Part shown: piece by piece, positions 53,943 to 63,548 of the stretch | Numbering within the stretch: position 1 is the first letter of the stretch | How the letters are laid out: the number at the start of each line of letters is the position of its first letter | Position numbers and translations under genes: made by a program | From: Patulibacter minatonensis DSM 18081 | GTDB lineage: Bacteria; Actinomycetota; Thermoleophilia; Solirubrobacterales; Solirubrobacteraceae | Assembly (NCBI RefSeq): GCF_000519325.1 | Contig: NZ_KI912613.1 | Location: forward strand, 340,864 to 404,863 | Length of the DNA: 64,000 nucleotides | Direction: 5' to 3' | Notes under the pieces: generated by a model | Told to the model about the DNA's origin: nothing | Seen by the model: the letters and a program-made list of their open reading frames with translations, nothing else | The model's database searches: none

Positions 53943-56165
53943 ATGTCCTCCCTGTTGGCGCGCTATTCGCGCTCCCTGATCCACCACTGGAAGCGAACGC
54001 TCGGTGTCGCGTTCCTGGTGCTCGTCCTCCTCGGCGTCGCCTCCGGCGTCGCCGGCGGCCCGTCGGCCGACAACAACAAGATCCCCGGCGCCGAGTCGCA
54101 GAAGGCGATCGACCTCTTCCAGGCGCACGGCCAGGCGAACCTCGCCGGTGCCGACGCCGACGTCGTCTTCCAGGCGAAGTCGGGCAAGCTGACCGACCCG
54201 AAGGCCCGCGCCGACATCGAGAAGACCCTCGCCGCGGTCCGCAAGGTCGATCACGTCGCGAAGGCCGACTCGCCGTTCGCCAAGGGCGGCCTGGTGTCGA
54301 AGGACGGCACGATCGCCCAGGCGAAGGTGCAGTACGACGTCGAGGCGATCAAGCTCGACAAGAAGGACGGCACGAAGCTCGAGGACGCGCTGAAGACGGT
54401 GAAGGACCCAGCCGTCCAGATCTCCTCGCGTGGCCAGGTGGTGGACCTCGCGGCCGAAGAGAGCTTCCCGGTCGGTGAGCTCGCGGGCGTCGCCATCGCG
54501 ATGGTCCTCCTGACGGTCCTGTTCGGCTCGAAGGCCGCGATGGGCGCCACGCTGCTCGGCGCGGTCGCCGGGGTGATCTTCGGCCAGGTGCTGATCGCCG
54601 CACTGGCCAAGCCGCTCGGACTGCCGAGCTTCGCGAGCCAGATCGCCCTGATGCTCGGCCTCGGCGCCGGCATCGACTACGCGCTCCTGATCGTCGGCAG
54701 ATACCGGGAGCAGCTCGCGGCGGGCGACTCCAAACGCGACGCGGCGGCGAAGGCGGCGGCGACCTCCGGCGCGTCCGTCGTGGCCGCCGGCGCGATCGTC
54801 ATCGTCGCGATCCTCGGCCTCTACGCCACCGGCATCCCGCTGATCGGCGCCATGGGTCTCGGCACCGCGCTCGGCGTCCTCGCCGTCGTCCTCGCCGCGC
54901 TGTTCGTGCTGCCGGGCATGCTCGGCGCGTGGGGCGAGAAGCTGCGCCCGCGGAAGATCGAGCACGTCCAGCCGTCGCCGTTCTTCGCCCGCTGGGGCGA
55001 GAGGATCACCCGTCGCCCGTGGCTGTCGATCGGCGCCGGCGTCGTGATCCTGCTCGTCTTCGCCGCGCCGCTGACGCAGATGCGCCTCGGTCAGCCCGAC
55101 GACGGCAACAAGGGCGCCGACAAGACGCAGCGGATCGCCTACGACGCACAGGCGAAGGCGTTCGGCAAGGGGTCCAACGGCACGTTCCTCCTCGCCGTCG
55201 ACATCGGGAACAAGAACGACCCGGCCCTCAAGGACCAGCTCGCGAAGATCGCGTCGGACGTCAAGAAGACGCCGGGCGTGGCGTCCGCGTCCCCCGCCGT
55301 GACGAGCCCCGACGGCGAGATCGCCACGATCGGCGCCGTCCCGACGACCGCGCCGCAGGACCAGAAGACCAGCGACCTCCTCTCGACGCTCCGCGACGAC
55401 GTGCTGCCGCAGGCGACGAAGGGCACGGAGCTGAAGGTCTACGTCGGCGGACAGACGGCCGGGTTCGAGGACTTCTCCGACAAGGTCGCCAGCCGCATCC
55501 CGCTGTTCATCGCGCTCGTGATCGGGCTGTCGGTGATCCTCCTGATCGCGGCCTTCCGCTCGCTCTGGATCCCGCTGGTGTCCGCCGTCTTCAACCTGTT
55601 GTCGGTCGGCGCGGCCTACGGCGCGGTCGTCGCGGTCTTCCAGCAGGGCTTCGGGTCGAGCCTGATCGGGGTCGAGAACGGGGTGCCGATCATCTCGTTC
55701 CTGCCGGTGATGCTGTTCGCGATCCTCTTCGGGCTGAGCATGGACTACAACGTCTTCCTGCTCTCCCGCATCCAGGAGGCCCACCACGAGGGCGAGAAGC
55801 CCCGGCAGGCGGTGATCATCGGCCTCTCCCGGATCGGCAAGGTGATCCTCGTGGCCGGCCTCGTGATGGCGTCGGTGTTCCTGTTCTTCGCCACGGCGGA
55901 CGACGTGATCGCCAAGATGTTCGGCGTCGGGCTCGGCGTGGCGATCCTCGTCGACGTGCTGATCGTCCGGCTCGTCGTCGCCCCGGCGGTCGTGCTCCTG
56001 CTCGGCGAGAAGGCCTGGTGGCTGCCGAAGTGGCTGGACCGGATCCTCCCGAACGTGTCGCTCGAGGGGCACCTGGTCAAGAACGAGGACCCGAAGGGCG
56101 AGCCGCTCCAGGGCTTCGAGGCGCCGCAGCCCCAGCGGGAGCACGCGGTGGCCGCGGGCGACTGA
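53943..56165 (+). CDS. MMPL/RND-family transporter
   Basis: A 740-residue protein from ATG 53943 with CAGGAG upstream. Twelve helices in the MMPL layout: helix 1 near 15-35, an outside domain of about 130 residues, helices 2-6 near 170-320 with GLGAGIDYALLIVGRYRE (about 238-255), a second outside domain (about 360-510) and helices 8-12 with LFGLSMDYNVFLLSRIQEAHHEG (about 596-618). The two DY pairs are the proton-relay positions of MMPL proteins. It should export lipids or drugs using the proton gradient. Divergent from the TetR gene; followed by a strong terminator hairpin. Confidence 0.93.
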   Translation: MSSLLARYSRSLIHHWKRTLGVAFLVLVLLGVASGVAGGPSADNNKIPGAESQKAIDLFQAHGQANLAGADADVVFQAKSGKLTDPKARADIEKTLAAVRKVDHVAKADSPFAKGGLVSKDGTIAQAKVQYDVEAIKLDKKDGTKLEDALKTVKDPAVQISSRGQVVDLAAEESFPVGELAGVAIAMVLLTVLFGSKAAMGATLLGAVAGVIFGQVLIAALAKPLGLPSFASQIALMLGLGAGIDYALLIVGRYREQLAAGDSKRDAAAKAAATSGASVVAAGAIVIVAILGLYATGIPLIGAMGLGTALGVLAVVLAALFVLPGMLGAWGEKLRPRKIEHVQPSPFFARWGERITRRPWLSIGAGVVILLVFAAPLTQMRLGQPDDGNKGADKTQRIAYDAQAKAFGKGSNGTFLLAVDIGNKNDPALKDQLAKIASDVKKTPGVASASPAVTSPDGEIATIGAVPTTAPQDQKTSDLLSTLRDDVLPQATKGTELKVYVGGQTAGFEDFSDKVASRIPLFIALVIGLSVILLIAAFRSLWIPLVSAVFNLLSVGAAYGAVVAVFQQGFGSSLIGVENGVPIISFLPVMLFAILFGLSMDYNVFLLSRIQEAHHEGEKPRQAVIIGLSRIGKVILVAGLVMASVFLFFATADDVIAKMFGVGLGVAILVDVLIVRLVVAPAVVLLLGEKAWWLPKWLDRILPNVSLEGHLVKNEDPKGEPLQGFEAPQPQREHAVAAGD

Positions 56166-56222
56166 GCGCCCGGTCGGGCCGACACCCGGGCTCCGCAAGC
56201 GGGGCTCGACCCCCACGCAGCA

Positions 56223-56250
56223 CCGCGACCCGGCTCAGGCCGGGTCGCGG
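56223..56250 (+). terminator. 12-bp stem terminator after the MMPL gene
   Basis: CCGCGACCCGGC (56223-56234), loop TCAG, GCCGGGTCGCGG (56239-56250): perfect stem, followed by TCGTTCC. Strongest terminator candidate on the plus strand of the window. Confidence 0.75.
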
Positions 56251-56317
56251 TCGTTCCGCACCGGGGCGCGACGGCCCCGCGGAGCGCCAGGACCCGGCCC
56301 CCGACGGGATCGTCGCG

Positions 56318-56725
56318 CTACGTCGCCTCGCGCTCCGGCGCCGTGAACGTCGCGGCGGTGACGACGCACGCGATGCCCAGCAGCAGCAGGTTCCGGAGCG
56401 TCGGGCCGTTGTCGTGAGCGACGCTCATGAGGAGCACGAGCGCGACTCCGCAGGCGATCCACGTGATCGCCGCGGGCCACGCGACGGCGGGCCGCCCCGA
56501 CTTCGCCGCCCACCACAGGACGATCGACAGCACGAGCAGCGCGACGCCCAGGGCGACGATCGCGGTCCACTGCCACGCGTCCGCCGAATCCGTCCACGCG
56601 GCGGCCGGACCACCGCACGACTCGTCGCACGCCAGCCCGCCGACGATCCACGCGACCCAGGCGGCGCAGGTCGACCACCCCACCGCGAGGGATGCGGCGA
56701 TCATCGACGCCAGGCGACCGGGCAT
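56318..56725 (-). CDS. Small four-helix membrane protein
   Basis: A 135-residue protein from ATG 56725, whose A overlaps the TGA of the previous gene (TGATG). Four hydrophobic segments: about 6-28, 55-72, 78-100 and 108-128. A Cys-containing loop (ACDESCGGPAAAWTDSADAW) between helices 1 and 2 is probably outside. It is the last gene of the DUF2339 operon. I do not recognise the family. Confidence 0.75.
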   Translation of the reverse strand: MPGRLASMIAASLAVGWSTCAAWVAWIVGGLACDESCGGPAAAWTDSADAWQWTAIVALGVALLVLSIVLWWAAKSGRPAVAWPAAITWIACGVALVLLMSVAHDNGPTLRNLLLLGIACVVTAATFTAPEREAT

Positions 56726-57081
56726 CACCGGCCCCCGCGCGTCGCGAACCACCCGGACACGGCCCGGAGGACGTGGGCGGTCACCGCACAGAGGAGCAGC
56801 ACGGCGGCCAGCGGCCCACCGAGGACCACCGCGATGAACGGCCAGTCCTGCGCGCGGGTGCAGCCGGTCGCACCCGGTCCACCGCACACGCCGTCCGGGT
56901 CCGCGGGCTCCCCCGGGAACCACGTCCCGAGGAGCGCGAACACGAGGGCAGCCACGACGACCAGCGCGGTGGCGGCGTAGAGCACGCGCACGGCGTCCCA
57001 CCGCCCGCTCGACGCAGCGTGCGCACCACGCTCCCGCCACTCGCGCGGGCTCCGGGGTGCCCCGGTGTCCAGACCGGTCAC
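56725..57081 (-). CDS. Small two-helix membrane protein
   Basis: A 118-residue protein from GTG 57081, overlapping the stop of the preceding gene (GTGA). Two helices at about 30-50 (VLYAATALVVVAALVFALLG) and about 80-105, joined by a loop PADPDGVCGGPGATGCTRAQDWPF with two Cys. The N-terminus is basic and cytoplasmic. Family unknown; its position inside the coupled DUF2339 operon suggests a subunit or accessory role. Confidence 0.72.
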   Translation of the reverse strand: MTGLDTGAPRSPREWRERGAHAASSGRWDAVRVLYAATALVVVAALVFALLGTWFPGEPADPDGVCGGPGATGCTRAQDWPFIAVVLGGPLAAVLLLCAVTAHVLRAVSGWFATRGGR

Positions 57082-57359
57082 GACACGCCCCCGTCCCCGC
57101 CCGGCAGGCCGTCGAGCGCGCCGACGCCGAGCAGCACGACCAGCAGGGCGACGAAGCCGACGCTCGCGGCGGCGACGCAGAGCACGAGCGGCGAGAACCA
57201 CAGGCCGTGCCGGGCGGCCCGGACGCCGATCGCGGCGATCGCCAGCGCAAGGACCACGAGGACCGCTCCGACCGCGAGGGTCCCGAGCGCCGTGCCCGTG
57301 CTCGCGACGACCGGGGATGCAGCCGCGAGGCCCGCCGCCGCGGGCACCACCCCGGTCAT
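57078..57359 (-). CDS. Small two- to three-helix membrane protein
   Basis: A 93-residue protein from ATG 57359, which overlaps the DUF2339 stop (ATGA). Hydrophobic segments at about 5-45 (LAAASPVVASTGTALGTLAVGAVLVVLALAIAAIGV) and about 58-84 (FSPLVLCVAAASVGFVALLVVLLGVG). It ends GLPGGDGGVS. No known domain. Like its neighbours it is coupled by overlap, so the four proteins are made together. Confidence 0.72.
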   Translation of the reverse strand: MTGVVPAAAGLAAASPVVASTGTALGTLAVGAVLVVLALAIAAIGVRAARHGLWFSPLVLCVAAASVGFVALLVVLLGVGALDGLPGGDGGVS

Positions 57360-59677
57360 CGGATGCTCCCGGTGCGGTCGGAGAAGCGCGCGACGTCGGC
57401 CGATGCGCCTGCGGACCGGAGGTCGTCGACCGACGGTCCGTGGTCGCCGACGTCCTCGGAGGAGGTGGGCTTCAGCCGCGCGTAGAGGCCCGCACCGACG
57501 AGGAGCAGCGCGCCGAGGACGGCCCACGCGACGACGCGGCCGGCGGTGTCGACGTCGGCGAGGTCGATCAGGGCGATCTTCACGCCGATGCCCGCGAGGA
57601 ACGAGAGCCCGACCATGCGGACCGGCGCCTCGGCGCGGACCAGGCCGGCGGCGAGGAGGCCGAGTCCGGTCGTGGCCCAGAGCACGTCGCGGGCGACCGC
57701 CGAGGCGTCCGCACCGCCGCCGAGGGCGCCGGCGACGTGGCCCGCGAGGATCGAGGAGGCCAGCAGCAGGGCGCCGCCGGCGGTCGCGACGAGCGTGGTC
57801 CGGAGTCCGGGGCCCAGCGGGCGCGGACCCGTCTCCTCGTCGGCGTCCGTGTCGGTCGCCGCGTCGCGCTCGTCGGTGTTCGCGTCGCCCGGGCCGCCTG
57901 CGTCGGCGTCGAACGCGTGGAGGACCAGCGTGTGCGCGCCGCGGAGCGCGAAGGCCCCGACCGCCGCGGCCGCGGCGACGGCCAGGATCGGCAGGACGAG
58001 GTCGCCGACCGTGCCCGCCGGGACGACGTCCCAGGTGGCCTGGGCCGGCGCACCCTCGTCGTGGAGCAGCGCGATCGCCGCCGAGATCGCGAGCACGGCG
58101 AGGCCGGCACCGCGGGCCACGAGGTCCGGGGCGCGGCGGTCGAGCAGCAGCAGCCCGGCGGCCTGCGCGGCGAGGACGAGCGACAGGTCGACGCCGTCGA
58201 GCGTCACGGCGGTCCAGACGAAGGCGACAGCGAGCGCCGACAGGTCGAGGATCATCCGGGCGTCCTCGCTGCGGGGCGCGATGACGCGGGCGGACACGCC
58301 GCAGACGGCGGCCAGGACGGCGCAGGCGACGACGAAGCTGTCGGGCCCTTGGCCGTAGGCGCCCGCGGTCTCGATCAGCGCCAGGCCGGCGTGCAGTCCG
58401 AGGCCGCCGATCAGGACCGGCATCTGCTGGCGGGCGGCGTGGCGGGCCAGGAGCGCGAAACCGACGGCGGTGACGGCCCAGCCGAGCAGCTGCAGCAGGC
58501 CGGACGCGGCGATCGCGAAGCCGAGGTCGAGGATCAGGACCGACGTCGAGAGGAGGACGAGCTCGACCGGCGTCGCGGTGCGGGCGCTGCGCCGGACCCG
58601 CAGGGCGGAGCCGGCGAGCAGCCCCGCCGCGAGGACGAGGGTCACGACCGCCGCGGCGGGCCGGTCGACGAGCGCGTAGCCGCCCGCCAGCGCCGCGGCG
58701 GCGCCGGCGTGGACGACGAGCAGCAGCGGCATGGTCCAGCGCTCACGGGCCTCCGGGTTGCGGAGCTCCCAGCCGGCGACCATCGCCAAGCCGGCGCCGA
58801 GGGTCGCGAGGATCGCGACGCCCGGGGCGACGAGCGTCCCGGAGGACGGGTCGGTCGACTGCAGGTCGTCGAGCAGGACGACGACGTGCCAGGCGATCTG
58901 CGGCAGCGCGAGCGCCGTGGCGGCGGCGGCGAGCCACGTCCAGGGACGGTGGCGCAGCAGCAGGCCCGTGGCGGCCATGGCGAGGACGACGACCGGCAGG
59001 ACCAGGCCGTCGACCGGCGCGATGATCGGCGCCGCGAGCGCGCCGAGCAGGCCGATGCCGGCCAGCGGCGGGGCGTCCCAGCGGAGCGCGAGGGCCGCGG
59101 ATGCGACGCCGAGCGCCGCGAGGGCCGGCAGGCCGAGGAGCGTCGGGACGAGCTCGTAGGTCGCGGTCGACACGGCGACCGTGGCGTAGAGCCCGGCCAG
59201 GCCGGTGCCCGCCATCGCCCAGGAGGCCTCGCGGGCGACCCCGTTCCGGGCGTTCCGCAGGCCGGCGGCGAGCAGTCCGACCGAGGCGGCGGCGCCGAGC
59301 AGGCAGCGCAGCGGCTCGCTCAGCCAGCCGTCGCGGACGCCGAGCCAGAAGAGGGTCCCGAGCGCGAACAGCAGCGCGGCGCCGCCGGCCCAGGCGAGCA
59401 GCCGGCCGCCGACGAGGGCCTCGTCGAGCCGGACGCGGACCGGAGCGGGTGGGGCCTCGACGGGGCGTGGGGCGACGAGCGGCCCGTCGACGCGCTCGAC
59501 GACGGTCGGCCGCGCGACGGGTCGGGGCTCGGGCCGCGGCTCCGGGGCCGGTCGGCGGGGCTGGGAGCCCGCGGTCGGGACGCCGACGTAGGCCTCCACG
59601 CGGCTGAGCCGTCGCTGGAGGTCGGCGATCACGTCCGGCGGGACGCTCGGGGCTTCGGGGGTGGCGGTGCGGGACAC
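57356..59677 (-). CDS. DUF2339-family polytopic membrane protein
   Basis: A 773-residue protein from GTG 59677 with AAGAGG 7 nt upstream. A cytoplasmic N-terminus of about 95 residues has a short coiled-coil (VIADLQRRLSRVEAYVG) and a Pro-rich linker. More than 20 helices then follow in the DUF2339 pattern, starting VGGRLLAWAGGAALLFALGTLFWLGVRDGWL. An acidic cytoplasmic loop (about 610-650, DADAGGPGDANTDERDAATDTDADEE) interrupts them. The family is widespread, with unknown function. It heads a four-gene overlapping operon, whose promoter carries seven palindromic sites shared with the divergent TetR gene. Confidence 0.88.
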   Translation of the reverse strand: MSRTATPEAPSVPPDVIADLQRRLSRVEAYVGVPTAGSQPRRPAPEPRPEPRPVARPTVVERVDGPLVAPRPVEAPPAPVRVRLDEALVGGRLLAWAGGAALLFALGTLFWLGVRDGWLSEPLRCLLGAAASVGLLAAGLRNARNGVAREASWAMAGTGLAGLYATVAVSTATYELVPTLLGLPALAALGVASAALALRWDAPPLAGIGLLGALAAPIIAPVDGLVLPVVVLAMAATGLLLRHRPWTWLAAAATALALPQIAWHVVVLLDDLQSTDPSSGTLVAPGVAILATLGAGLAMVAGWELRNPEARERWTMPLLLVVHAGAAAALAGGYALVDRPAAAVVTLVLAAGLLAGSALRVRRSARTATPVELVLLSTSVLILDLGFAIAASGLLQLLGWAVTAVGFALLARHAARQQMPVLIGGLGLHAGLALIETAGAYGQGPDSFVVACAVLAAVCGVSARVIAPRSEDARMILDLSALAVAFVWTAVTLDGVDLSLVLAAQAAGLLLLDRRAPDLVARGAGLAVLAISAAIALLHDEGAPAQATWDVVPAGTVGDLVLPILAVAAAAAVGAFALRGAHTLVLHAFDADAGGPGDANTDERDAATDTDADEETGPRPLGPGLRTTLVATAGGALLLASSILAGHVAGALGGGADASAVARDVLWATTGLGLLAAGLVRAEAPVRMVGLSFLAGIGVKIALIDLADVDTAGRVVAWAVLGALLLVGAGLYARLKPTSSEDVGDHGPSVDDLRSAGASADVARFSDRTGSIR

Positions 59678-59710
59678 GGTACGGCCTCTTCGGGACGATC
59701 TTCGGGGCCC

Positions 59711-59933
59711 TGTCGACCCCCGGTCAGGAGCGACCGTAGCAACGCTGCTGACCAAGAGTCAACACTTCTTGACCTCGGGTCTACAAGCTCCTGACCTCCG
59801 GTCGACACGGAATCGCCGTCCCCGACGGCGTTTCGCGTCGACCGGAGGTCGACAAGAAGACGTGCGTTCGTCGACCCGCGGTCGACAGGATTCGGCCGTC
59901 CTGCGGGGTCGTTCTGTCGACCACGGGTCGACA
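59711..59933. promoter_or_regulatory. Array of seven 19-bp operators (TGTCGACC-N3-GGTCGACA)
   Basis: Seven sites of the form TGTCGACC-N3-GGTCGACA lie between the DUF2339 and TetR starts. They are at 59711-59729, 59746-59764, 59767-59785, 59789-59807, 59836-59854, 59869-59887 and 59915-59933. The last is perfect and sites 5 and 6 have one mismatch each. Site 4 has lost about three matches in its left arm; sites 1-3 are weaker, with at least one arm degraded. Centres are 35, 21, 22, 47, 33 and 46 bp apart. The last site overlaps the -35 region of the TetR promoter and the first lies 34 nt from the DUF2339 start. The neighbouring TetR protein is the obvious ligand. Confidence 0.78.
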
Positions 59934-59937
59934 GCGC

Positions 59938-59943
59938 TATCCT
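59938..59943 (+). promoter_or_regulatory. -10 box TATCCT before the TetR gene
   Basis: TATCCT lies 6 nt before GTG 59950, with TGTCGA (59915-59920, part of operator 7) at 17 nt as a possible -35. A leaderless, autoregulated transcript is likely. Confidence 0.5.
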
Positions 59944-59949
59944 CGTCGG

Positions 59950-60630
59950 GTGCCCCTGCCCCGCAAGGACCAGGCCGCCCGCACGAAGGGCGCGCGGTCG
60001 TACCGCCGCATGACCGTCGACGACCGTCGCGCGGAGCTCCTGGAGCGCGGCACCGCGCTGTTCACCGAGCACGAGTACGGCGATCTGACGATGTCGAAGA
60101 TCGCCAAGGCGGCCGGCGTCTCCAAGCCGCTGCTCTACCACTACTTCCCCACGAAGCAGGCGTTCTTCCTCGCGACCGTGTCGGCGGCGACGGAGGAGCT
60201 CGCCGGCAAGGTCCGCCCGCGACAGGACATCCCGCTGGGCGACGCCGCGGTCGAGGCGCTCGGCGCCTACCTCGAGTGGATCGACGAGCGCCCGCTGGCG
60301 TTCCGCCGCCTGCTGACCGCCGCGGCGGCCGAGCCGGGGGTGCGGGAGATCCTCGCCGGCGTCCGCAACGACACGGTCGCGCGGATCGCCGACTCGCTCG
60401 GGCACCCCGACGTCCACGCGGCCCCGCCGGCACTCCGCGCCGCGCTCCACGGCTGGCTGCTGTTCATCGACGGCGCGATCCTCGTGCGCCTGGACCTCGG
60501 CGCCCCGACCCGCGAGGCGCTCGTCGAGCAGCTCCTCGGCACGCTCGCCGGCGCGATCCTGGCGGCGGGCGACGAGACGGCCGCGGCGAAGCTGCTCGAG
60601 GCCGACCCCGTCGGCGACCTGGCCGGCTGA
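59950..60630 (+). CDS. TetR family regulator of the DUF2339 operon
   Basis: A 226-residue regulator from GTG 59950. HTH: RSYRRMTVDDRRAELLERGTALFTEHEYGDLTMSKIAKAAGVSKPLLYHYFPTKQAFFLATV (about 16-77). The C-terminal domain contains YLEWIDERPLAFRRLLTAAAAEPGVREILAGVRNDTVARIADSL, the pattern of a large group of actinobacterial TetR regulators. The binding sites around it (seven palindromes) are unusually numerous for one TetR. Effector unknown. Confidence 0.9.
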   Translation: MPLPRKDQAARTKGARSYRRMTVDDRRAELLERGTALFTEHEYGDLTMSKIAKAAGVSKPLLYHYFPTKQAFFLATVSAATEELAGKVRPRQDIPLGDAAVEALGAYLEWIDERPLAFRRLLTAAAAEPGVREILAGVRNDTVARIADSLGHPDVHAAPPALRAALHGWLLFIDGAILVRLDLGAPTREALVEQLLGTLAGAILAAGDETAAAKLLEADPVGDLAG

Positions 60631-60698
60631 GCGTGGCCCGCCGCCCCGTCGCGGGCCCGTCCCGGCACGCGGACGCCCGCGCCGCCGGCGCCTGATCG

Positions 60699-61496
60699 GT
60701 GGCGCGGCGCCGGAGCACCCGGGGCACCCGGCCCGTCGATCCCGTCCGCGTGGAGTCGGGGGTCGGCGTCCTCGAGCTGCAGCCCGACCGCGCGCGCCCC
60801 GGCGGCCGCCTCCTCCTCATCGACGGGCTCGCCCACGGCTACGTCGATCTCGACGATCCGACGCACCTGGAGCTGGACTACGTCGCCCGGATCGGCGCGG
60901 CGCTCGAGGTGCTCGTGCCGCGCGGCGCGGAGGCCGACGTCCTGCACCTCGGCGGCGGCGCGTTCAGCCTCCCCCGGTTCCTCGCCAGCACCCGCCCCGG
61001 GGTCCGGCAGACGGTCGTCGAACGCTCCGGCGCGGTCGTCCGGCTCGCCGAGAAGCACCTCCGGCTGCGCCGCGGCCCGGGCCTGAAGGTGCTGCAGGCG
61101 GACGGGCGCCGCGTCGTCGGGGAGGGCGCGGACGACGCGTTCGACCTCGTCCTCGGCGACGCCTTCGTCGGCACCGAGACCCCGGAGCCGATGGCCACCG
61201 CGGCCTTCGCGGCGCAGGTCGCGCGGGTGCTCCGTCCCGGCGGGCGGTACCTCCTCAACACGGTGGACCAGCCCCCGTGGCCGTTCGCCGCCGAGCAGGC
61301 GTCGCACCTCCGCGGCGCCTTCGCCCATGTCCTCGCGTTCGGTGGACGGGACGTCGTCCGCGGTCGGCACGCCGGCAACGTCCTCTTCCTCGCCTCCGAC
61401 GCGCCCCTCCCCCGCGAGGCGCTCGCCCGCCGGATCGCGGGCGGCGCCCACCCGGCCGAGATCGTGCCGGCCGAGCGGCTCGCCGGCTGGGGCTGA
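60699..61496 (+). CDS. Spermidine synthase-like methyltransferase-fold protein
   Basis: A 265-residue protein from GTG 60699. The Rossmann fold of the spermidine synthase superfamily is clear: ELDYVARIGAALEVLVPRGAEADVLHLGGGAFSLPRFLASTRPGVRQTVVERSGAVVRLAEKHLRLRRGPGLKVLQADGRRVVGEGADDAFDLVLGDAFVG (about 55-155), then VARVLRPGGRYLLNTVD. Members may not make spermidine; many lack the polyamine-binding residues, and I cannot confirm them here. The function is open. It follows the TetR gene by 68 nt on the same strand. Confidence 0.8.
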   Translation: MARRRSTRGTRPVDPVRVESGVGVLELQPDRARPGGRLLLIDGLAHGYVDLDDPTHLELDYVARIGAALEVLVPRGAEADVLHLGGGAFSLPRFLASTRPGVRQTVVERSGAVVRLAEKHLRLRRGPGLKVLQADGRRVVGEGADDAFDLVLGDAFVGTETPEPMATAAFAAQVARVLRPGGRYLLNTVDQPPWPFAAEQASHLRGAFAHVLAFGGRDVVRGRHAGNVLFLASDAPLPREALARRIAGGAHPAEIVPAERLAGWG

Positions 61497-61589
61497 GCGG
61501 CAGGCCGGGAGCCGACGCCGGCCCGCCGACCGCGACGGGCCCACCGCGCGGCGGGCGGGCCCGGGTCCCCGGTCCGCTAGGAATGAGCC

Positions 61590-61894
61590 ATGCCGCGAGC
61601 GATCCCCCGTGACGAGGCCCTCGAGCTCCTGGAGTCCTGGGTGCAGGAGCCGAGCTCAGCGGGTTCATCACGGCGTGCGCGAAGGTCCGGCCGCAGGGCA
61701 TCCACGGCCTGAACCCGAAGTCGGTGCGCAAGAAGCTGAAGACCGCGTCCTTCGCCGCGGCGGTCGACCGCGACGACGTGACGCAGGGCGCCGAGGAGAT
61801 CGGCGTCGACCTCGCCGAGCTGATCACGACGATCGTCGACGCGCTCGAGCCGCTGGCGGACGAGCTGGGGATCGCGGGCCAGGAGGCCGGCTGA
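61590..61894 (+). pseudogene. Broken HD-domain hydrolase gene (internal deletion with frameshift)
   Basis: The ATG at 61590 opens a frame MPRAIPRDEALELLESWVQEP and then shifts. From 61652 a second frame reads ELSGFITACAKVRPQGIHGLNPKSVRKKLKTASFAAAVDRDDVTQGAEEIGVDLAELITTIVDALEPLADELGI and ends at TGA 61894. In intact HDIG-type HD hydrolases that I know, the first piece is the N-terminus and the second the C-terminus, with about 100 residues including the catalytic HD motif between. Those are absent here and the pieces are out of frame (305 nt). The join has CGAGC (61651-61655), which fits both original flanks, so microhomology deletion is likely. Confidence 0.6.
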
Positions 61895-61947
61895 CGGCGA
61901 CCCCGGTCGGCCGGCGCGCCCGGCGCCGGCGCCACGCGCGCCGGCCG

Positions 61948-62634
61948 TCAGCGCGGCGGCAGCGTCTCCGCGATCCAGGCGGCGATCGCCGGGACGTGCT
62001 CCGGGGCGATGTGGTGCCCGCCGTCGTGGTCGAGGACCGTCAGGTCGAGCCCACCGGAGGTCACGAGCTCCCGTGCCGCGACCGCGAAGTCGAACCCGAT
62101 GACCGGGTCCCCGTGCCCGTGGGCGTTCAGCACCCGCGTCGCGCTCCGCGGCGCCAGGTCCGGCGCCCAGCCTCCGACCGTCGGGACGAAGCCGGACATC
62201 CCGAGCACACCCGCGACGACCGGGCGCGCCGGCAACCCGCCGTCGGCCGCGAGCGGCCCGAGCCCGGTCGCGTGGCTCATCACCGAGCCCATCGAGAAGC
62301 CACCCAGGATCGTCCGCTCCGGCGCGACGCCCGTGCGCTCCCAGAGCGCGTCGTGGAACGCGGCGAGCGCCCGGAAGCTGCCCGCGAACGAGTCGGGGTC
62401 GGGGTAGCCGACGCGCGGGACCACGTACCAGTGCTTCCCCGGCCAGCCCTGGACCCGCAGCGGCGCCCCGGGGGTGACGACGTGGAGGCGCCGCTCCGGG
62501 TCGAGGACGTCGGCGAGGCCGACGAGGTCGTGCTCGTCCGCACCGCGCCCGTGATGGAGGACCAGGAGGCCGTCGGGGTCGCCGGCGGCGGGGCGCTCGC
62601 GGAAGACGAGCTGCGGGGTCTGGGAGTCGGGCAC
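61948..62634 (-). CDS. Alpha/beta hydrolase (phospholipase/carboxylesterase family)
   Basis: A 228-residue protein from GTG 62634. It has the compact carboxylesterase pattern: LLVLHHGRGADEHDLVGLADVLDPERRLHVVTPGAPL (about 23-60), the nucleophile elbow GGFSMGSVM (Ser near 114), the acid NAHGHGDPVI (near 180) and the base DGGHHIAPEHV (near 206). The fold and short length match the YpfH/lysophospholipase-carboxylesterase group. The substrate is unknown. A TetR-type palindrome (62652-62669) lies just upstream. Confidence 0.9.
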   Translation of the reverse strand: MPDSQTPQLVFRERPAAGDPDGLLVLHHGRGADEHDLVGLADVLDPERRLHVVTPGAPLRVQGWPGKHWYVVPRVGYPDPDSFAGSFRALAAFHDALWERTGVAPERTILGGFSMGSVMSHATGLGPLAADGGLPARPVVAGVLGMSGFVPTVGGWAPDLAPRSATRVLNAHGHGDPVIGFDFAVAARELVTSGGLDLTVLDHDGGHHIAPEHVPAIAAWIAETLPPR

Positions 62635-62669: not shown

Positions 62670-62903
62670 GCGTAGCGCGTCGCGGGCTGCCCCCGTCGGC
62701 GAGGGTGCGGAACCCCCGGCGGAGCGCGCCGCCACGACCCGACCCGGACGGCCCGGGCGCCCGGCGGGCAGGGCGCGATGCGCCATCAGGGCGCCGCGGC
62801 GCCCAAAGATGCGGGTGGCCACCTGGATGCGGACACCGCACACGAGGACGAACGTCGCGGTACTCGCGCCGCCGTCGGGGCGGCGCACCACCGGAAGGCA
62901 CCC

Positions 62904-63548
62904 ATGCCCCGCATCAGCAGGCCCTCACCATCGATGGCCGTCGGCCTCACCGCGTTGTTCGTCGCCCTGGGCGGCACCAGCTACGCCGCGGTCTCGCTCC
63001 CGAAGAACAGCGTCGGCAGCAAGCAGATCAAGAGCTCGGCCGTCACCAGCGCGAAGGTCAAGGACGGCTCCCTCCTGACCAAGGACTTCAAGACGGGCCA
63101 GCTCCCGAAGGGCGCGACCGGGGCCACGGGAGCAGCGGGCGCCGCAGGCCCGGCCGGCCCGAAGGGCGACACGGGCGCGAAGGGCGACACCGGGGCCAAG
63201 GGCGACACCGGCGCGCCCGGCGCGCCCCCGGCCGTCGAGGCCCCGACGACCATCACCGGCTTCACCAACGGCTGGGTCGGCAGCTTCGCGAAGTACTACA
63301 AGGACCCCTTCGGCGTCGTCCACCTGGAGGGCCTGATGACGTCGGGCACGCTGAACACGACCGCGTTCGTCCTGCCGGCGGGCTACCGACCCGACATCAC
63401 GAAGTACTTCGCGCCGCTCGTGACCTCCGCCGGCGACACGCCGATCCTCTCGGAGCTCCGCATCTCGCCGGACGGCTCGGTCGCGCCGGTCAAGGGCAGC
63501 AACTTCTACTACTCGCTGGAGGGCGTGACCTTCCGCGCCGCGCCGTAG
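62904..63548 (+). CDS. Short collagen-like secreted protein
   Basis: A 214-residue protein from ATG 62904 with GGAAGG upstream. A signal peptide/anchor at about 8-30 (SPSMAVGLTALFVALGGTSYAAVSL) precedes KNSVGSKQIKSSAVTSAKVKDGSLLTKDFKTGQLP. A Gly-X-Y collagen-like stretch (about 69-107: GATGATGAAGAAGPAGPKGDTGAKGDT...) follows, then a C-terminal beta domain of about 105 residues. This whole layout is one I know from Thermoleophilia proteins and is the best taxonomic hint in the window. It is likely exposed outside the cell. Function unknown. Confidence 0.88.
   Translation: MPRISRPSPSMAVGLTALFVALGGTSYAAVSLPKNSVGSKQIKSSAVTSAKVKDGSLLTKDFKTGQLPKGATGATGAAGAAGPAGPKGDTGAKGDTGAKGDTGAPGAPPAVEAPTTITGFTNGWVGSFAKYYKDPFGVVHLEGLMTSGTLNTTAFVLPAGYRPDITKYFAPLVTSAGDTPILSELRISPDGSVAPVKGSNFYYSLEGVTFRAAP

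What the first reader, a model, noticed from the sequence alone, without database searches (positions are those of the whole stretch)
59711..59933. Seven palindromic operators packed in one divergent promoter of a TetR gene
Most TetR repressors have one or two operators. Here seven 19-bp sites matching TGTCGACC-N3-GGTCGACA (one perfect, two with one mismatch, four weaker) lie in 223 bp between the DUF2339 membrane operon and its TetR. The copies degrade towards the DUF2339 side. It may give graded or cooperative control, or act as a titration array. The function of DUF2339 proteins is unknown, so the ligand of this TetR would be informative.
Basis: partly seen in the sequence, partly recalled or inferred. 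Interest (0 to 1): 0.7.

Follow-up and report, generated by a model that had tools for sequence, protein, structure and literature searches.

The report
Expanded operator array of lipid-linked repressor
Seven copies of one repressor-binding DNA site really do lie between a repressor gene and a membrane-protein gene; they enlarge a two-site switch found in many relatives, in which the binding site doubles as part of the promoter, and the same switch also marks phospholipid-making genes.

Summary
The seven sites are real. A motif model built only from other genomes picks exactly these seven in the 64 kb window (19-26 bits; next best 10.5), and no shuffle of the intergenic region gives more than one. 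In about 40 related loci the same TetR gene sits beside the motif, usually as two sites 31-35 bp apart, with DUF2339 divergent from it. In 26 of 34 loci the operator half-site (mostly TTGACC) lies 17-18 bp from a TANNNT -10: the operator is the predicted -35 of the DUF2339 promoter, and in two-site relatives the same operator can serve tetR too. Patulibacter has 2-7 sites. The 'weaker' DUF2339-side sites are the conserved ones, not decayed copies. The motif also precedes a CDP-alcohol phosphatidyltransferase (8 of 9 genomes with the TetR, 0 of 3 without), small membrane proteins and, in two genomes, ino1. DUF2339 is not fully unknown: it is the Arc3A family, which stops lysophospholipid build-up. 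Most likely this is an autoregulated TetR repressor of a membrane-lipid regulon whose shared operator was multiplied, separating the two promoters. Binding, ligand and cooperativity are inferred, not shown.

The parts
59711..59729 (.). operator 1 (A), TGTCGACCCCCGGTCAGGA; covers the predicted DUF2339 transcription start
   Evidence: position conserved in Patulibacter relatives
59733..59738 (-). predicted -10 (TACGGT, minus strand) of the DUF2339 promoter, between operators 1 and 2
   Evidence: same element at offset 25-26 in 26 of 34 loci
59746..59764 (.). operator 2 (B), TGCTGACCAAGAGTCAACA; its minus-strand half TTGACT (59762-59757) is the predicted -35 of DUF2339, 18 bp from the -10
59767..59785 (.). 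operator 3 (C), TCTTGACCTCGGGTCTACA, 21 bp from operator 2
59789..59807 (.). operator 4 (D), TCCTGACCTCCGGTCGACA, 22 bp from operator 3
59836..59854 (.). operator 5, CGTCGACCGGAGGTCGACA; not matched in the other Patulibacter loci compared
59869..59887 (.). operator 6 (Z'), CGTCGACCCGCGGTCGACA; matches the site 45 bp upstream of Z in G007 and G002
59915..59933 (.). operator 7 (Z), perfect TGTCGACCACGGGTCGACA, over the tetR promoter
59938..59943 (+). predicted tetR -10 (TATCCT); start point would be near the GTG, i.e. a leaderless message
59950..60630 (+). TetR-family regulator, 226 aa
   Evidence: PF00440 1.2e-15; AlphaFold2 pLDDT 87; PDB 2qib TM 0.74
57356..59677 (-). DUF2339 (PF10101, Arc3A-family) multi-pass membrane protein, 773 aa; GTG start inferred
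   Evidence: PF10101 1.8e-26; about 20 predicted helices, modest confidence
56318..56725 (-). small membrane protein downstream of DUF2339 (start inferred); homologous to a gene in another genome that has its own operator pair (L079)
   Evidence: alignment score 100, z 8.9
60699..61496 (+). spermidine-synthase-like methyltransferase gene just after tetR, syntenic in the genus
   Evidence: NF037959 2.9e-31

Best explanation
The TetR at 59950-60630 is an autoregulated regulator, most likely a repressor, whose dimers bind TGTYGACC-N3-GGTCRACA. In most relatives two operators 31-35 bp apart control both divergent promoters: the TTGACC half-site of the tetR-side operator is the -35 of the DUF2339 promoter, the -10 lies between the two operators, the DUF2339-side operator covers the start point, and the other half of the tetR-side operator can act as -35 for tetR. 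In Patulibacter the operator was multiplied (2, 4, 4, 5 and here 7 copies) so that the DUF2339 promoter (operators 1-2) and the tetR promoter (operator 7) became separate, joined by extra operators in spacing classes of about 21, 33 and 45 bp that would allow neighbouring dimers to bind cooperatively and give a tighter or steeper response. The regulator also controls a CDP-alcohol phosphatidyltransferase in relatives that have it, small membrane proteins and, in part of Patulibacter, perhaps ino1, so it is a membrane-lipid regulator. Shown by sequence: sites, conservation, promoter overlap (consensus level), regulon co-occurrence. Inferred: binding by this TetR, repression, cooperativity, and a lipid-derived ligand such as an acyl-CoA, fatty acid or lysophospholipid.
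For: Motif from other genomes recovers exactly the seven sites; shuffles give at most one. Motif travels with the TetR: 34 of 40 homologous loci have sites, 27 with exactly two; in the genus, G001 and G003 without the TetR lack the array. DUF2339 occurs in 19 of 101 relatives, always with the TetR, adjacent and divergent. Operator half-site 17-18 bp from TANNNT on the DUF2339 side in 26 of 34 loci; TANNNT 15-18 bp from the half-site on the tetR side in 23 of 34. Sites upstream of the CDP-alcohol phosphatidyltransferase in 8 of 9 TetR genomes, 0 of 3 without (Pfam). Operator pairs before small membrane proteins in L077, L079, L080, L082, one homologous to a gene of the window operon. Spacings fall in 21-24, 31-35, 44-47 and 57 with empty gaps between.
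Against: No binding or expression data. The spacing classes come from related genomes and are not independent; 33-35 and 45-47 bp are not whole turns at 10.5 bp. The -35/-10 gap of tetR in Patulibacter is only 15 bp, so that promoter is weak or differently built. ino1 sites are in two genomes only and lie 280-460 bp upstream of the gene, so that target is uncertain. One TetR genome (G080) has sites about 700 bp rather than directly upstream of the phosphatidyltransferase. Six of 40 homologous TetR loci have no site (at least one is cut by a contig end).
Confidence: 0.78

Rival explanations
1. Titration array: most copies are decoys that soak up the TetR and set its free level, with only one or two sites regulating.
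For: Seven copies in one place, far more than elsewhere in the genome; operator 5 is found only here.
Against: Four to five of the sites are conserved in position in other Patulibacter species, and sites 1, 2 and 7 lie on predicted promoter elements. Seven sites on a chromosome are few against the usual number of regulator molecules (inference).
Confidence: 0.08
2. The TetR is an activator, like mycobacterial FasR (three inverted repeats upstream of fas, activated by binding), and the extra upstream sites recruit polymerase.
For: FasR is the best NCBIfam hit (52.7 bits, far below its cut-off of 330) and binds three inverted repeats (PMC7382501); sites 3-6 lie upstream of both promoters.
Against: Operators overlap the predicted -35 and start point of the target promoters throughout the family, which suits repression.
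Confidence: 0.1
3. Neutral tandem duplication: only operators 2 and 7 (and perhaps 1) matter, the rest are drifting copies.
For: Copy number varies 2-7 within one genus.
Against: Core positions of all seven sites are kept (19 bits or more), spacing is confined to classes, and a four-site array with the same spacings is found in Conexibacter CPCC 206217 (L221).
Confidence: 0.15
4. The palindromes are transcription terminators or other hairpin or repeat elements, not operators.
For: Each site is an inverted repeat.
Against: No T run follows, no Rfam match, the motif is tied to one TetR gene and placed on -35 elements.
Confidence: 0.02

Closest known systems
Tn10 TetR/tetA and similar divergent, autoregulated TetR repressors (own knowledge)
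   Same: divergent target gene, operators over both promoters, palindromic sites
   Different: two operators there; here up to seven, with the -35 inside the operator and further unlinked targets
Mycobacterium tuberculosis FasR (PMC7382501)
   Same: TetR fold, several inverted repeats at one promoter, lipid gene targets
   Different: FasR is an activator of fas-acpS; NCBIfam score far below cut-off
Thermus thermophilus SbtR (TGACYRNNYRGTCA) and PfmR/TTHB023 (PMC7022988)
   Same: TGACC-type half-sites; TTHB023 sites lie at fatty-acid genes; some of its promoters carry two sites
   Different: their spacer is even, here it is odd (TGACC-N3-GGTCA); no protein comparison made here
Streptomyces coelicolor TetR regulator 2qib
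   Same: best solved-structure match by sequence (5e-23) and fold (TM 0.74)
   Different: 27% identity; the entry carries no functional name, so no ligand is suggested
Arc3A (DUF2339, PF10101) of Pseudomonas aeruginosa (PMC8926400)
   Same: the target gene belongs to this Pfam family
   Different: there it is under Gac/Rsm control; here beside a TetR, and its activity in this lineage is untested

Membership tests
TetR family of regulators | N-terminal TetR_N helix-turn-helix and helical C-terminal ligand domain | tested here: met
   PF00440 57.5 bits; AlphaFold2 model and Foldseek matches to TetR proteins
TetR family of regulators | palindromic operator in the regulator's own promoter region | tested here: met
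   seven sites, motif conserved with the gene
TetR family of regulators | binding relieved by a small ligand | not testable with these tools
   needs purified protein
FasR (NCBIfam NF053731) | score above the curated cut-off of 330 bits | tested here: not met
   52.7 bits
FasR (NCBIfam NF053731) | activates a fas operon | not tested
   fas promoters were not searched
DUF2339 / Arc3A (PF10101) | PF10101 match above gathering score | tested here: met
   93.6 bits against cut-off 33.6
DUF2339 / Arc3A (PF10101) | very many transmembrane helices | tested here: met
   about 20 long helices predicted, pLDDT 67
DUF2339 / Arc3A (PF10101) | prevents lysophospholipid accumulation after phospholipase attack | not testable with these tools
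   shown in P. aeruginosa; homologues of other Gram-negative species complement (PMC8926400)

The most novel reading that the evidence does not exclude
The TetR is a dedicated sensor of membrane damage (lysophospholipid, free fatty acid or acyl-CoA) that switches on a regulon of lysophospholipid protection (DUF2339/Arc3A) together with phospholipid head-group synthesis in Thermoleophilia, and the multiplied, phased operators make that switch steep: a non-Gac/Rsm answer to how Arc3-type defence is controlled outside gamma-Proteobacteria.
Probability: 0.3. Interest if true: 0.75.

Novelty: new variant of a known kind. Interest (0 to 1): 0.52.

Why it matters
DUF2339/Arc3A proteins occur in most bacterial phyla, but their control is known only through Gac/Rsm in Pseudomonas, and the authors asked which other systems do it. 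Here a regulator, its operator and a lipid regulon are defined by comparison and can be tested directly. The set of relatives with 2, 3, 4, 5 and 7 operators at one promoter is also a natural series for asking what extra operators do.

Tried and rejected
The first named-genome scan with the single protein found nothing; the alignment-based scan worked. ino1 as a general target was rejected: sites only in G000 and G007 among 30 loci checked. FasR membership was rejected on score. No RNA family in 56000-62000. The original FasR operator paper is not held, so that operator was not compared. One search failed at the server and was replaced. Hits of the 17-bp core with 1-2 mismatches in the genome were not pursued as targets because the relaxed pattern gives 240 hits. 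DUF2339 structure prediction was of modest confidence and was not searched further.

Full report
Observation. A weight matrix made only from sites beside the homologous TetR gene in other genomes scores these seven at 19-26 bits; the next best place in the 64 kb window has 10.5 bits, and Markov-generated sequence of the same length gives 0.125 hits at 16 bits. In 20,000 dinucleotide shuffles of the 272-bp intergenic stretch, 92 gave one site of 14 bits and none gave two; of 200 column-scrambled matrices one found a single site and the rest none. Genome-wide, ten places match TGTYGACC-N3-GGTCRACA with at most two mismatches, seven of them here.

Genes. To the right lies a TetR regulator (59950-60630; PF00440; AlphaFold2 pLDDT 87; best solved match 2qib). 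To the left, on the minus strand, a DUF2339 protein (PF10101) starts near 59677, followed by small membrane proteins. An MMPL transporter gene (53943-56162) faces the operon. The genome belongs to Patulibacter or very near it: the nearest relatives of the TetR in named records are an Actinomycetota MAG (UFOp-RH-23may17-358), Patulibacter sp. E1 bin.19, P. americanus and P. medicamentivorans.

Conservation. Of 101 related genomes 42 have the TetR or a near homologue; DUF2339 is found in 19, always in a genome with the TetR and always next to it and divergent. In named genomes 34 of 40 homologous TetR loci carry the motif, 27 of them exactly twice, mostly 31-35 bp apart. Some more distant homologues in delta-proteobacterial, Polyangia and Chloroflexi MAGs also have two sites 30-33 bp apart (L246, L247, L260, L264, L269, L271, L272, L273). 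Patulibacter relatives have 2 (G002, where DUF2339 is absent and an MMPL gene lies there instead), 4, 4 and 5 sites, the window 7. The block on the DUF2339 side, A-33/35-B-21-C, with the -10 between A and B, is shared by four genomes (D only by G000 and G004); Z over the tetR promoter and Z' 45 bp before it are shared by several; operator 5 is particular to this genome. So the sites nearest DUF2339 are the old ones and are not degraded: they use the TGCTGACC/GGTCAACA variants that are normal in the family.

Promoters. In 26 of 34 loci the operator half TTGACC (or a close variant) on the minus strand is followed after 17-18 bp by TANNNT, with the other operator just beyond it over the start point; towards tetR, 23 of 34 loci have TANNNT at 15-18 bp from the half-site of the last operator. 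In two-site relatives both readings use the same operator, so one palindrome can act as -35 for both divergent promoters. In the window these roles are split: operator 2 (-35 TTGACT, -10 TACGGT at 59738-59733) for DUF2339 and operator 7 (-10 TATCCT at 59938-59943, probably leaderless) for tetR. The multiplication of operators in Patulibacter therefore seems to have separated two promoters that overlap in the relatives. This is an inference from comparison, not a shown history.

Regulon. Sites also lie upstream of a CDP-alcohol phosphatidyltransferase: 8 of 9 genomes with the TetR, 0 of 3 without; the ninth, G080, has two sites about 700 bp upstream. Operator pairs precede small membrane proteins in L077, L079, L080 and L082, and the L079 protein is homologous to a gene of the window's DUF2339 operon (z 8.9). 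In G000 and G007 three to four sites lie upstream of ino1, myo-inositol-1-phosphate synthase, but not in 28 other ino1 loci (one weak hit), so this is at most a lineage-specific target.

Function of the target. DUF2339 is the Arc3A family. In Pseudomonas it protects against phospholipase toxins and stops lysophospholipid accumulation, is driven there by Gac/Rsm, and the authors noted that other signalling systems should be looked for elsewhere (PMC8926400); a second study confirms protection against lipase effectors (PMC12663445). Together with the phospholipid-synthesis targets this points to a membrane-lipid regulator. The ligand is unknown; an acyl or lysolipid ligand is a guess from the regulon.

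Spacing. Neighbouring sites across the family are 21-24, 31-35, 44-47 or 57 bp apart, with no cases between (also 30 and 56). The steps of about 12 bp suggest that dimers keep a fixed relation round the helix. The loci are related, so the p-values printed must not be taken at face value.

Verdict. Real, conserved and functional-looking; a many-site variant of a common kind of autoregulated TetR switch. The strongest new points are the operator acting as -35, the regulon that ties DUF2339 to phospholipid synthesis, and the graded series of operator numbers. Binding, direction of control, cooperativity and ligand remain to be tested.

Noticed in passing
G000:C1:2019495-2019648 (L076:5496-5649): Three copies of the same operator between a CDP-alcohol phosphatidyltransferase and ino1, 290-430 bp upstream of ino1; four copies at the same place in G007.
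   Followed up: partly
window 53943-56162 (+): MMPL transporter gene convergent with the DUF2339 operon; in G002 an MMPL homologue stands directly upstream of tetR with two operators between, in place of DUF2339.
   Followed up: partly
window 60699-61496 (+): Spermidine-synthase-like methyltransferase gene directly after tetR, syntenic in the Patulibacter loci seen, probably co-transcribed.
   Followed up: no
window 62778-63548 (+): Protein with a short collagen-like Gly-X-Y stretch after a signal-like N-terminus.
   Followed up: no
L221 (Conexibacter sp. CPCC 206217), 48-161 bp upstream of the tetR match: A four-operator array with spacings 47, 22, 44: the same spacing classes, apparently gained independently.
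   Followed up: partly
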